Positions 3,344-22,425 of a stretch of 23,355 bases of DNA are shown here, piece after piece. Location of the stretch: positions 1 through 23,355 of the IMG/VR virus record IMGVR_UViG_3300035725_000010. One strand, 5' to 3'. The notes below the pieces were generated by a model that was not told the DNA's origin, ran no database searches, and saw only the letters and a program-made list of their open reading frames with translations. Origin of the DNA: a virus. How positions within the stretch are numbered: the stretch's first letter is position 1; each line of letters begins with the position of its first letter. The position numbers were made by a program, and so were the translations under genes.

Positions 3344-3739
3344 TTAACCGACTTTTTGCAGCCGGCGCAGGCGGGCTGTGCGGGTGTCCCTTTTGGCCGG
3401 CGTCCGGGTCCGTTTCACGATAAGCCCTTGAACCAGAGCCAGTTGCCGTTCCCAGGTCGCGCGGTCGCGGGCAACTGCTTGGTCGATGACCGACCCGGCG
3501 CCGCCGTGTTCCGCAATGAGACGGTCACAATTTGCCAGGAGGCGAAGGAGGCGCGTTTGTTGCCGTCCCAGGTAGGACAGTGGCCGGGCTTCCAGGCGCG
3601 CGAGAAAAGCCGTCTCGGTGTAGCGCGAGGGGAGCAGGTATCGCGGCGTCCGCTTAGCCGCCTTGCGTGCTGTCGCGCGGTGTTGCTGGCGCGTCAGGCG
3701 CAGGCTCGGGATTCGTTCTTCGTTGTGATTCGTGTTCAT
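3344..3739 (-). CDS. Basic hypothetical protein, about 131 aa
   Basis: Very Arg/Lys-rich and probably helical, with a long amphipathic stretch (RRQQTRLLRLLANCDRL-like) near the middle and a basic tail (RLRRLQKVG). Possible DNA-binding or structural role from composition only. ATG at 3739 is chosen; ATG at 3763 is also in frame. Either start overlaps the preceding gene strongly (86 bp or 110 bp), which is unusual in this window, so the true start may be further in. Confidence 0.6.
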   Translation of the reverse strand: MNTNHNEERIPSLRLTRQQHRATARKAAKRTPRYLLPSRYTETAFLARLEARPLSYLGRQQTRLLRLLANCDRLIAEHGGAGSVIDQAVARDRATWERQLALVQGLIVKRTRTPAKRDTRTARLRRLQKVG

Positions 3740-3992
3740 CGTTCTTTTGTTGGTCGTTGGCAATGGCTACGGCGTTCCCGCATATCTCGCACAGGCGAAG
3801 CAGGCGCCCCGTGGCCGAATCTTTTATGACGATGCGCCGGACCTCCAGGTTCGCCAGCGCGTCGGACGGCGTAACGTCACGGTCCGCGAAATACGATGTC
3901 GGCCGGGCCGTCGTCAGGTATGCCAGCCGGTTGCAAGTCCGGTCGCACTCGATATGCCAGCGGCAAAGCGGGTTCTCGCAAAACTTGCTCAT
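3654..3992 (-). CDS. Small zinc-finger-like protein, 112 aa
   Basis: ATG at 3992 overlaps the preceding stop (ATGA). Two cysteine clusters suggest metal binding: CENPLCRWHIEC near the N-terminus and LCEICGNAV around residue 77. The C-terminal 35 residues are Pro/Asp/Gln-rich and look disordered. Function unknown. The 3' end overlaps the next gene by an unusually long 86 bp. Confidence 0.7.
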   Translation of the reverse strand: MSKFCENPLCRWHIECDRTCNRLAYLTTARPTSYFADRDVTPSDALANLEVRRIVIKDSATGRLLRLCEICGNAVAIANDQQKNDEHESQRRTNPEPAPDAPATPRDSTQGG

Positions 3993-4477
3993 TCGATGCG
4001 CAGCTTCAGGTCCCGCGCGGTGTTGCCCAGCAGGCCGGCAATGGACTGCGCGAGGTTCGCCGCCAGCGCGCCGCCCAGGATGTAGCCGCCGGTGATGTTC
4101 ACGGGCGTGCCCCGCAGGCGGTCGCGCAGGGTGATGTGGGCGCGGTCCTGGCCGCGGCTGAAGCGAAGCATGATGACGCACGCGGCCCCGTGGAAGAACA
4201 CTTGCCCCACGTCCAGCACGGGGGAGGCATCGCCCTCGCGCGGGAACAGCTGCCGGACGGTCTGCCCGTCGGTCAGGCGGATTAGCCCCTTGTCGCGCTT
4301 CTCGATTTTGCTGCCCACGCGCGCGACCTGTTTCGCGTCCGGGTGCAGCTTGCGCACTTCGCGCAGCAGGTCGTTATAGACCTCCTTCGCGGCTGCCCCG
4401 ACGGCGTTGCAGGGGACCTCAACGGTGCAGGGCGCGCCGTCAACCAGAAATTCACCGACGATGACGTTGTTACTCAT
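3989..4477 (-). CDS. Hypothetical protein, 162 aa, head of P2 operon
   Basis: ATG at 4477, 6 nt beyond the GGGATA of promoter P2, so the mRNA is probably leaderless. No family recognised. The C-terminal part has a Gly/Ala-rich segment (NITGGYILGGALAANLAQSIAGLL) that is moderately hydrophobic and could be a single membrane-associated helix. It starts a run of nine overlapping genes. Confidence 0.75.
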   Translation of the reverse strand: MSNNVIVGEFLVDGAPCTVEVPCNAVGAAAKEVYNDLLREVRKLHPDAKQVARVGSKIEKRDKGLIRLTDGQTVRQLFPREGDASPVLDVGQVFFHGAACVIMLRFSRGQDRAHITLRDRLRGTPVNITGGYILGGALAANLAQSIAGLLGNTARDLKLRIE

Positions 4478-4482
4478 TCTAC

Positions 4483-4722
4483 CTATCCCAGTGTGGACTT
4501 TTTCGGAAATGTCAACCCCCCGGGATTAGGATTCGCGCGGGCGTAGATGCGCAGCGCGTTCCCGCGGCGGTCCACGACGAGCACCTCGCCGCTGTAAAAG
4601 CGCGCGATGCAGTGCGCCAGCTGTATCCGCATGGCGGGCGGGATGGTTGGGTCGTCGTGGCTCGGGAAGCCGATGTCCGCGAACCGGGCGTCTAGTTCTT
4701 TTTCGAGTTTGTTGAGTTTCAT
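4483..4722 (-). CDS. Hypothetical protein, 79 aa, 3' end runs through promoter P2
   Basis: ATG at 4722 overlaps the preceding stop (ATGA). Helical N-terminus (MKLNKLEKELDARF). The last ten codons are the promoter P2 sequence itself, read as LTFPKKSTLG and ending at the TAG within GGGATAG. The reading frame therefore doubles as a promoter. No family recognised. Confidence 0.7.
   Translation of the reverse strand: MKLNKLEKELDARFADIGFPSHDDPTIPPAMRIQLAHCIARFYSGEVLVVDRRGNALRIYARANPNPGGLTFPKKSTLG
4484..4515 (-). promoter_or_regulatory. Promoter P2, class I
   Basis: Minus-strand TTGACA (4510-4515), 20 nt, GGGATA (4484-4489), with CACACT directly before GGGATA. ATG of the 162-aa gene follows by 6 nt. 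It lies inside the 3' end of the previous gene. Confidence 0.8.
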
Positions 4723-5150
4723 GTGCGTTGAAAAATTCGCCACGCGTAAGCCACGCGGCGGCGTCGGAATTGTTTTGGTGCGTCAGAAAAAGGCACGGGC
4801 GTCTTGGTCCACGAGTCGCAGAATAGGCCCCCGTTTAAAAGGACAAAGTGGCCGGTCAGCGCGACAAGCGTGTCAGAATTTCCTCCGCCCCACCATGCGG
4901 ACAATTGCTTCAATGTCGGCTTGGCGTAGGCGGACAACTCGTGAAGATTCCACACTGTCTCAAACCCGTAGCCCATTGTCTCAAGCACGCACAGCACTTC
5001 GCTGGGGCGCATGCTCGATACCGGCTTGGCATCGCCGCGCCAATGCTGCACGGCGTCGCGTATCTCGCGCGTGCCGCGGCCGGTGATGGCGCTGATGGCC
5101 GCAGGGCCGCACCAAAGTTTTCCGCGCAGGTCGTGTTTGACGGTGTGCAT
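4719..5150 (-). CDS. C39-like cysteine peptidase
   Basis: 143 aa from ATG 5150, 2 nt after the previous stop. Catalytic candidates follow the papain/C39 order: Cys14 in KLWCGPAAISAITG, His101 in LTGHFVLLNGG and Asp112 in FCDSWT. C39 domains cleave after double glycines in bacteriocin exporters, but stand-alone phage and bacterial copies with this 'WCGPAA' pattern are of unknown target. No signal peptide. An in-frame start at 5180 would add a basic extension and is less likely because it overlaps the preceding gene. Confidence 0.7.
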   Translation of the reverse strand: MHTVKHDLRGKLWCGPAAISAITGRGTREIRDAVQHWRGDAKPVSSMRPSEVLCVLETMGYGFETVWNLHELSAYAKPTLKQLSAWWGGGNSDTLVALTGHFVLLNGGLFCDSWTKTPVPFSDAPKQFRRRRVAYAWRIFQRT

Positions 5151-5152
5151 AA

Positions 5153-5290
5153 TTATTCGGCTTCGTTTACAAAAACCCACTGGTCATCGGTTGCCAGCTC
5201 CAGCGCCTCTTCTGCTCGCTCAAAGTGCGGGGTGATTTCCACCCAGTTGTGGTAGGTGATTTTGTCCACCGTGGTGATGATGTATATCAT
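5153..5290 (-). CDS. Small hypothetical protein, 45 aa
   Basis: ATG at 5290, stop TAA at 5153-5155. Begins MIYIITTVDKITYHNW and ends DDQWVFVNEAE: a compact beta-rich, acidic protein. It fills the space between two coupled genes with TAA-A-ATG on one side and TAA-TT-ATG on the other. No family recognised. Confidence 0.75.
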   Translation of the reverse strand: MIYIITTVDKITYHNWVEITPHFERAEEALELATDDQWVFVNEAE

Positions 5291-21072: not shown

Positions 21073-21273
21073 ATGAGTGACCTGTTGCAATTTATCAAGG
21101 AAACCGAGGCGGCGCATTTTCGCACGGTCCACGACACGGGCGCGAATCTGAACGCGCTTCTCGTTTGGAATCTCGTGCGTGAACACGCCGGCTTGCCGCG
21201 ATTGCGGCTGAGCGACCTGCGGTCGTATTGTTCCAAGTGCGCTTGCTACCACACTACCCCGCATTGCCATTGA
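21073..21273 (+). CDS. Hypothetical protein with Cys/His tail, 66 aa
   Basis: ATG at 21073. Helical N-terminus (DLLQFIKETEAAHF) and a C-terminal CSKCACYHTTPHCH, a likely zinc site. Stop overlaps the TTG start of the recombinase. Confidence 0.7.
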   Translation: MSDLLQFIKETEAAHFRTVHDTGANLNALLVWNLVREHAGLPRLRLSDLRSYCSKCACYHTTPHCH

Positions 21274-21962
21274 GGACCTTCGCATATCTGCGCGTCAGCA
21301 CCAAGGAACAGCTCGACATGAACGGGCTGGACCGGCAGCGCGACGCGGTGCGCGCGTATGCGGACCGCGCCGGGTTCACCATCGCGCGCACGTTCGAGGA
21401 ACAACAGTCCGGCGGCGCGGCGTTCGAGGACCGGCTCATGCTAATTGAGATGCTGGAACTCGCGGTAGCCTGCGACGTGGGCGCCATCATCGTCGAGCGC
21501 GCGGACCGCGTGGCGCGCGACCTCATGGCCCAGGAACTTTTTTTCGTGAAGTGCCAGGAGCAGAACGTCAAGGTGTTCGCTGCGGACACGGGCCAGGAGC
21601 TTACCTGCAAGGACGGCGACCCGACCCGCGTGTTGCTGCGGCAACTGCTCGGCGCGCTGGCGCAGTGGGAGAAGGCCGTCATTGTTAAGAAGCTGCAAGA
21701 CGGCCGGCGGCGCACGGCGGCGAAGACCGGCCGGCCCTGTGGCGGGCCGCGGCGGTTCGGGGATAACCCGGACCCGGCCGAGAACGCAGACGAGCGGCAT
21801 ATCCTCGTCGTCATCCGCGACCTGCGCCGGCGAGGGATGACCTATCAGGTCATCGCGGAGCGGCTGCGGCAGCTCGGGCACCGGGCGCCGTCGGGCCAGA
21901 CTTACTGGCATTCCAGCACCGTGATGAGGCTTGACAAATCACCAGAACCGCCCACTTCTTAG
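21270..21962 (+). CDS. Serine recombinase (resolvase/invertase family)
   Basis: 230 aa; TTG at 21270 overlaps the preceding TGA and puts the resolvase domain at the N-terminus. FAYLRVSTKEQ carries the catalytic Ser10; IIVERADRVARD and the helix around LGALAQWEKAVI fit the catalytic domain, and residues 157-222 (PCGGPRRFGDNP ... MTYQVIAERLRQLG) look like a short recombinase/HTH DNA-binding domain. It lacks the long zinc-ribbon and coiled-coil extension of large serine integrases. It could integrate the phage, invert a segment or resolve multimers. The 3' end encodes promoter P7. Confidence 0.88.
   Translation: MRTFAYLRVSTKEQLDMNGLDRQRDAVRAYADRAGFTIARTFEEQQSGGAAFEDRLMLIEMLELAVACDVGAIIVERADRVARDLMAQELFFVKCQEQNVKVFAADTGQELTCKDGDPTRVLLRQLLGALAQWEKAVIVKKLQDGRRRTAAKTGRPCGGPRRFGDNPDPAENADERHILVVIRDLRRRGMTYQVIAERLRQLGHRAPSGQTYWHSSTVMRLDKSPEPPTS
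21931..21962 (+). promoter_or_regulatory. Promoter P7, class II
   Basis: TTGACA (21931-21936), 16 nt, CACT, TCTTAG (21957-21962). Nested in the last codons of the recombinase gene (the TAG is its stop). Predicted start of transcription near 21965-21971. Confidence 0.75.
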
Positions 21963-21966
21963 GTGG

Positions 21967-22250
21967 CACTATGAATTTTTTCGCCGAGCCTCCAGCTAAC
22001 GCTGGTCGTCGAAGGTCCTGCCCCCAGGATTCGGTAACGGGGCAGGCGGTCAGGGGCACCGCATTCCAGCCAAAGAAAGTCTCCACCAATTTGACGGGAC
22101 GAAGCGTTTTGGCCGAGCACCTAAATGGTCCGGCAAGGGGCGTTGAGTCTTCGGACCGTCAGCGGGTCAATGATGACAGCGGGGTATTAAGCCCGCAGCC
22201 CGTCATCCGAGGCAGCCTGCGTCAGTGGCTTAAACAACGCGCCCCTTACT
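21967..22250 (+). ncRNA. Candidate large structured RNA with pseudoknot, upstream of terL
   Basis: Mutually compatible helices: 21992-21996/22001-22005 (UAAC tetraloop); 22017-22024/22039-22046 (8 bp, CCTGCCCC/GGGGCAGG); 22047-22050/22058-22061; 22069-22075/22107-22113 enclosing 22079-22083/22096-22100; 22127-22132/22152-22157 (GGTCCG/CGGACC); 22172-22177/22202-22207 (GATGAC/GTCATC) enclosing 22179-22183/22192-22196; 22214-22217/22227-22230. The loop of GGTCCG/CGGACC (22135-22142, AAGGGGCG) pairs perfectly with 22240-22247 (CGCCCCTT), extended by TTG/CAA past a 2-nt bulge: a pseudoknot closing the 3' end. An ORF (21971-22276, 101 aa) spans it but its third-position GC is only about 60%, unlike neighbouring genes. 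No match to tmRNA, RNase P or group I intron cores was recognised. Confidence 0.7.
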
Positions 22251-22254
22251 TTCT

Positions 22255-22425
22255 ATGCGCGGGTTGGACAACCTGAAGCTGTGGTTCCTCCTAACGGTGA
22301 TGCCGACCGTCGTCGCCATCGGCGAGGTCTGGCTGGCCCTGCGGCGCCGGCCACGCAACACCTACCTCGTCGCGCTGGGCCAATGTTACTTTCGGCTGGC
22401 CCGTGCGCTGAAGAAAATCCGGTGA
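22255..22425 (+). CDS. Small single-span membrane protein, 56 aa
   Basis: ATG at 22255, stop TGA 22423-22425. LKLWFLLTVMPTVVAIGEVW is a transmembrane helix, followed by a basic tail (LRRRPRNTYL; RLARALKKIR). It is in the same frame as terL, separated by TGA-CCC-GTG, so the TGA is the only thing preventing a membrane-anchored fusion. No clear Shine-Dalgarno; the start is 8 nt after the pseudoknot. Confidence 0.6.
   Translation: MRGLDNLKLWFLLTVMPTVVAIGEVWLALRRRPRNTYLVALGQCYFRLARALKKIR

What the first reader, a model, noticed from the sequence alone, without database searches (positions are those of the whole stretch)
21967..22250. Large structured RNA with a closing pseudoknot just upstream of the packaging terminase
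Within 284 nt at least eight perfect or near-perfect helices can be drawn without conflict. The loop of one (AAGGGGCG, 22135-22142) pairs with CGCCCCTT about 100 nt downstream (22240-22247), which is hard to expect by chance. A promoter of the phage's own class sits at the right distance, and the spanning ORF lacks coding bias. Position between recombinase and terL is unusual; the best-known packaging-associated RNA is the unrelated phi29 pRNA. Possible roles: a terL regulator, a packaging or capsid RNA, or a new ornate phage RNA. Alternatively the inverted repeats could be the attachment site of the adjacent recombinase.
Basis: partly seen in the sequence, partly recalled or inferred. Interest (0 to 1): 0.88.

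Follow-up and report, generated by a model that had tools for sequence, protein, structure and literature searches.

The report
New pseudoknotted phage RNA near tRNA genes
A stretch of about 160 bases beside a phage's DNA-packaging gene encodes a previously uncatalogued folded RNA, held together by two pseudoknots, that a whole group of about 70-kb environmental phages has kept for a long time, often right after a transfer-RNA gene, although what it does is unknown.

Summary
The RNA is real. Its conserved part is window 22088-22251, not all of 21967-22250. Twelve distinct relatives give 40 base pairs, 99.2% of cells paired, 17 pairs with changes on both sides, not reached by any of 500 shuffles; slid registers pair only 31-47%. 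A covariance model that does not contain this pseudoknot finds the RNA in distant phages, where it again closes perfectly with other letters. A second pseudoknot is also conserved (22163-22167/22198-22202 crossing 22172-22176/22203-22207). The 101-aa ORF shows no coding signature (TerL control). No Rfam family fits. Link to terL: not supported. Distance to TerL runs from 7 nt to about 3 kb, with other genes between; in distant relatives the RNA lies in tRNA arrays, four times directly after a tRNA's CCA. Best reading: an independent ~135-170-nt phage noncoding RNA of a tRNA-array locus, comparable in setting to GOLLD and ROOL but smaller and unrelated by any test made here. Its function was not shown.

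The parts
22088..22251 (+). conserved structured RNA ('RNA-A'), the finding proper
   Evidence: CM R1 match 161.5 bits; covariation
22083..22091 (+). 5' boundary CCACCA-ATT; in L051, L143, L147 and L180 the same place is the CCA end of a tRNA followed by a T-rich spacer
22092..22104 (+). helix H1, 5' arm (TGACGG - GA - CGAAG)
   Evidence: 11 pairs, 7 with changes on both sides, 100% paired
22149..22161 (+). helix H1, 3' arm (CTTCG - GA - CCGTCA)
22112..22134 (+). hairpin H2 inside H1 (GCCG...CGGC invariant in the 12; upper stem variable, longer in L018)
22135..22142 (+). long-range pseudoknot PK1, 5' strand AAGGGGCG
22240..22247 (+). long-range pseudoknot PK1, 3' strand CGCCCCTT
22163..22167 (+). 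second pseudoknot, stem S1 5' strand CGGGT (pairs 22198-22202 GCCCG)
   Evidence: G-C, A-T, T-G at the last pair across lineages
22198..22202 (+). second pseudoknot, stem S1 3' strand GCCCG
22172..22176 (+). second pseudoknot, stem S2 5' strand GATGA (pairs 22203-22207 TCATC)
22203..22207 (+). second pseudoknot, stem S2 3' strand TCATC, directly joined to S1
22179..22196 (+). hairpin in the S2 loop, lineage-specific (other lineages have other hairpins or none here)
22214..22230 (+). hairpin H6 AGCC-[UGCGUCAGU]-GGCU; its loop has a recurring GCG
21963..22082 (+). variable 5' region, present only in the window's nearest relatives; not part of the conserved RNA
21228..21962 (+). serine recombinase (resolvase N-terminal domain), flanking gene
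   Evidence: PF00239 E 8e-22
22255..22425 (+). 56-aa ORF (probable small membrane protein) following the RNA; its homologue lies about 100 nt further downstream of the RNA in L018
22429..23355 (+). TerL-like gene, open at the window's end (Walker A GAGKQSKS, Walker B FVFVDEI); profile support weak

Best explanation
The element is an independent noncoding RNA gene of about 135-170 nt. Shown: it is conserved as an RNA structure of the + strand, with helix H1, an 8-10-bp long-range pseudoknot (PK1) between the loop of H1 and its 3' end, and a second pseudoknot S1/S2 whose two 3' strands are joined directly; one copy was found in each record that the model detects. Shown: in distant relatives it lies next to or among tRNA genes, in four cases directly after a tRNA's CCA. 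Inferred: it is transcribed with the neighbouring RNAs and genes, its 5' end is made by processing at the CCA-AUUU boundary, and PK1 closes and protects the 3' end, giving a compact stable RNA. Inferred: it acts in trans, most likely by binding a protein or the translation machinery during infection, and not on the terminase gene. The window's lineage appears to have lost the tRNAs and kept the RNA.
For: Covariation in 12 distinct relatives, 40 pairs, 17 with changes on both sides. Distant homologues found by a model without PK1: L153 33 bits, L149 22 bits, L051 22 bits, with weak hits in L180 and L124 of 12 bits; all five have a perfect 8-9-bp PK1 in the right place, L051 with wholly different letters (GAGACAACG/CGUUGUCUC). 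S1/S2 in L051 is GCGG/CCGC with GCCGGG/CCCGGC, same topology. Across 16 lineages 11 different PK1 sequences, 134 of 134 pairs Watson-Crick (partly selected, see evidence against). A tRNA lies directly upstream in L051, L143, L147, L180. Records of about 71-74 kb from the window's clade have no tRNA match yet keep the RNA. Distance to TerL 7 nt to 3.3 kb. No coding signature: changes by codon position 176/201/179 against 608/336/2077 in TerL.
Against: No expression data, so an independent transcript is not shown. In the window's own clade the RNA is close to TerL or to a small ORF, as a leader would be. L143, L145, L147, L152 and L155 were recognised partly because their PK1 strands match, so their PK1 is not independent evidence. 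The 5' and 3' ends are inferred. No promoter or terminator was found.
Confidence: 0.6

Rival explanations
1. A cis-acting leader: the structure sits in the late mRNA and controls translation or transcription (for example RNA-mediated antitermination, as by HK022 put) of the terminase operon or of the gene just downstream.
For: Same strand as TerL in every lineage; in L024, L026 and L046 PK1 ends about 7 nt before the TerL ATG, and in the window 7 nt before the ATG of the 56-aa ORF; no separate promoter was found.
Against: The downstream gene changes (56-aa ORF, TerL, HNH-like gene, tRNA-like sequence, glycosyltransferase-like gene) and TerL can be 3 kb away; in L051 further tRNAs follow the RNA.
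Confidence: 0.2
2. A packaging RNA comparable to phi29 pRNA, binding the terminase or portal.
For: Same gene neighbourhood as TerL in all lineages found, though most lineages were found through TerL or its neighbours, which biases this.
Against: Distance to TerL is not conserved and the recurring neighbour in the distant clade is a tRNA; no match to the pRNA or any other Rfam family.
Confidence: 0.07
3. A catalytic RNA (self-cleaving or processing ribozyme) that cuts the polycistronic tRNA-array transcript at its own boundaries.
For: Compact double-pseudoknot fold, invariant unpaired bases, recurrent CCA-AUUU boundary upstream and U-rich 3' flank.
Against: No match to any ribozyme family in Rfam; kept in lineages without detected tRNAs.
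Confidence: 0.05
4. A protein-coding gene of 101 aa with incidental pairing.
For: The frame is open in the window and partly in relatives.
Against: Frame shifts between relatives, no codon-position signal, more nonsynonymous than synonymous codon changes (323 to 76), no protein family.
Confidence: 0.02
5. DNA inverted repeats used as attachment or resolution site by the adjacent recombinase.
For: Adjacent serine recombinase in the window's clade.
Against: Two pseudoknots, and strand-specific G-T tolerance with almost no A-C.
Confidence: 0.02

Closest known systems
GOLLD RNA
   Same: Phage-borne, near tRNA islands; conserved 3' part with a less conserved 5' part; one GOLLD was first found downstream of a Met-tRNA (PMC12286853). 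Here too a variable stretch precedes the conserved part and a tRNA-Met is the usual neighbour in distant relatives.
   Different: GOLLD often exceeds 800 nt; this RNA is 133-171 nt. No GOLLD match at E<=10 in window, L046 or L018, nor at E<=5 in L124 or L145.
ROOL RNA
   Same: Phage and prophage RNA near tRNA islands, multiple pseudoknots, unknown function (PMC12286853).
   Different: Size and sequence; no ROOL match in the same Rfam searches.
phi29 packaging RNA (pRNA)
   Same: Small structured phage RNA; here a terminase-like gene is nearby.
   Different: No Rfam match; no constant link with the packaging gene.
HK022 put RNA
   Same: Structured phage RNA; put acts in cis on RNA polymerase at early genes (PMC9378689, abstract seen).
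   Different: From general knowledge put is short with simple stem-loops; this RNA has two pseudoknots. Not tested by model.

Membership tests
GOLLD | match to its Rfam covariance model | tested here: not met
   no match at E<=10 or 5
GOLLD | phage location near tRNA genes | tested here: met
   in L051, L143, L147, L180, L124, L145, L153, L155; not in the window itself
GOLLD | length of several hundred to over 800 nt | tested here: not met
   conserved part 133-171 nt
ROOL | match to its Rfam covariance model | tested here: not met
GOLLD / ROOL | assembly into RNA-only nanocages | not testable with these tools
   needs cryo-EM or native gels
phi29 pRNA | match to its Rfam covariance model | tested here: not met
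phi29 pRNA | required for DNA packaging | not testable with these tools
   needs a packaging assay
cis-acting terL leader | constant position directly upstream of terL | tested here: not met
   distance 7 nt to about 3.3 kb
structured RNA | compensatory changes beyond controls | tested here: met

The most novel reading that the evidence does not exclude
A previously unknown class of phage noncoding RNA, part of an array of several unrelated structured RNAs (this one, a second conserved stretch of about 125 nt, and tRNA-like segments ending in CCA) that a whole phage group carries as a non-protein module alongside or instead of tRNAs.
Probability: 0.4. Interest if true: 0.88.

Novelty: new variant of a known kind. 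Interest (0 to 1): 0.74.

Why it matters
Some phages carry structured RNAs of unknown purpose beside their tRNAs; GOLLD and ROOL are the best studied. This adds a far smaller RNA with strong covariation, two pseudoknots and many divergent homologues. At 135-170 nt it is a convenient size for structure determination, chemical probing and pull-downs, so the open question of what tRNA-island RNAs do for phages becomes easier to test.

Tried and rejected
Folding energy as evidence: not significant. Rfam at gathering and at loose thresholds: nothing that fits the RNA, apart from the neighbouring tRNAs. Bacterial genomes by DNA pattern: 42 stretches, in which the model finds only weak matches, the best 20.5 bits and confined to the region of the pattern itself, so regarded as chance. 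L139, found by pattern: 10 bits, regarded as chance. Phage and plasmid collections by blastn: no meaningful match. L027 and L028: no homologue found even with filters off. Structure prediction of the TerL-like protein failed (pLDDT 34), and PHROGs and Pfam give at best weak support, so TerL rests on its motifs. A sequence-free structural descriptor is not specific by itself, roughly one chance match in 40 kb of these GC-rich sequences. MAFFT cannot align the divergent set, so those helices were checked by hand; the S1/S2 assignments are firm in the 12 close sequences, L051 and L147, fair in L124, L143, L149 and L153, tentative in L145, L155 and L180, and not assigned in L152. In one search the window's S1/S2 spacing of 7 is an artefact of string matching (a first GCCCG lies in the inner hairpin); one search gives the true position, with no gap.

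Full report
Observation. The window is a viral record of 23,355 bases. The folding energy of 21967-22250 is not unusual (z -1.43), so the claim had to be tested by comparison. There is no Rfam match.

Relatives. Searches with the recombinase, the TerL-like protein and the 101-aa ORF gave several lineages of the same phage group. Between recombinase and TerL all lineages used in alignment A1 share a stretch of about 165 nt, 64-78% identical between the main groups, while the rest of the gap is largely replaced.

Structure. On twelve distinct sequences the proposed 40 pairs are formed in 99.2% of cells; 17 pairs have changes on both sides, against a shuffled mean of 7.2 and no shuffle as high; registers slid by 1-3 columns pair in 31-47%. 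These sequences are related, so the shuffles alone are not a probability, but the slid registers keep relatedness. Paired columns diverge less than unpaired ones (0.197 against 0.349). Non-Watson-Crick pairs are G-T (17 cells), hardly ever A-C (2 cells), which points to RNA of the + strand. The structure is H1 (two stems around a 2x2 internal loop) enclosing hairpin H2 and the 5' strand of PK1; then S1 and S2 crossing each other with directly joined 3' strands; then hairpin H6; then the 3' strand of PK1 and a U-rich flank.

Not coding. In the ORF's frame changes fall evenly on the three codon positions (176/201/179), with 323 nonsynonymous and 76 synonymous codon differences; TerL in the same lineages gives 608/336/2077 and 618/1722. 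Indels shift the frame between lineages.

Distant homologues. The model R1 contains H1, H2, S2 and H6 but not PK1 or S1. It nevertheless finds L051 (22 bits), L153 (33 bits) and L149/L150 (22 bits), with weaker hits in L180 (12 bits, E 0.15) and L124 (12 bits). All five close a perfect PK1 of 8-9 bp at the right place. In L051 most letters differ, yet H1, PK1, S1 and S2 are all present. Five more (L143, L145, L147, L152, L155) were recognised by the descriptor or by eye, with PK1 as one criterion, so for them PK1 is not independent evidence; for L143 and L147 the place directly after a tRNA's CCA is. Sixteen lineages show 11 PK1 sequences.

Setting. In the window's clade the RNA lies 7 to 246 nt before TerL; in the distant clade 1.5 to 3.3 kb, with other genes between where that stretch was read. 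There it lies downstream of or between tRNAs: directly after tRNA-Met in L051, L143 and L147 and after tRNA-Trp in L180. The stretch before the RNA ends in CCACCA-ATT in the window too. Four records of 71-74 kb of the window's clade have no tRNA match at E<=0.001 yet have the RNA once each. Completeness of these records is not stated, so the absence of tRNAs is provisional.

Explanation. Best reading: an independent phage RNA belonging to a tRNA-array locus, processed at the CCA boundary and closed by PK1, acting in trans. Structure and setting are shown; transcript, processing and function are inferred. The cis-leader reading remains possible, chiefly for the window's clade. Packaging RNA is unlikely given the variable distance.

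Known relatives. GOLLD and ROOL share phage origin, tRNA islands, complex folds and, for GOLLD, a conserved 3' and less conserved 5' part (PMC12286853, read). Neither matches by covariance model and GOLLD at least is much larger. This is therefore filed as a new RNA family, like GOLLD and ROOL in setting and not a member of either.

Noticed in passing
L046 about 3696-3828; L023 about 4420-4550; L124 about 1780-1910; L145 about 1600-1730: A second conserved, probably structured stretch of about 125 nt (GCAAGGCAGCCCGCGACGGCGGA...CAACGGTGCTTCCGTTG...) upstream of or near the RNA in the same arrays, ending near CACCAATTT; alignment A4. Covariation not tested; no Rfam match.
   Followed up: partly
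L180 2854-2925; L051 about 2552-2627: tRNA-like genes with enlarged anticodon loops: ARAGORN reads a four-base anticodon (ttga) in L180, and the L051 one appears to have an 8-nt loop by eye. Possible frameshifting tRNAs.
   Followed up: no
L124 1200-2040: Several tRNA-like segments in a row, most ending in CCA followed by ATT(T), with weak matches to tRNA-Sec and permuted tmRNA below cut-off.
   Followed up: no
L023 about 4725-5220: A gene with HNH-endonuclease-like sequence lies between the RNA and TerL (seen by eye).
   Followed up: no
L012 4699-4974 and equivalents: A 91-aa fibronectin-III-like protein gene between recombinase and RNA in most relatives, missing in the window (Pfam fn3 E 0.013, below cut-off).
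   Followed up: partly
L046 248-1357: A 370-aa ORF made largely of repeats of the type VNNFPATQPVSG.
   Followed up: no
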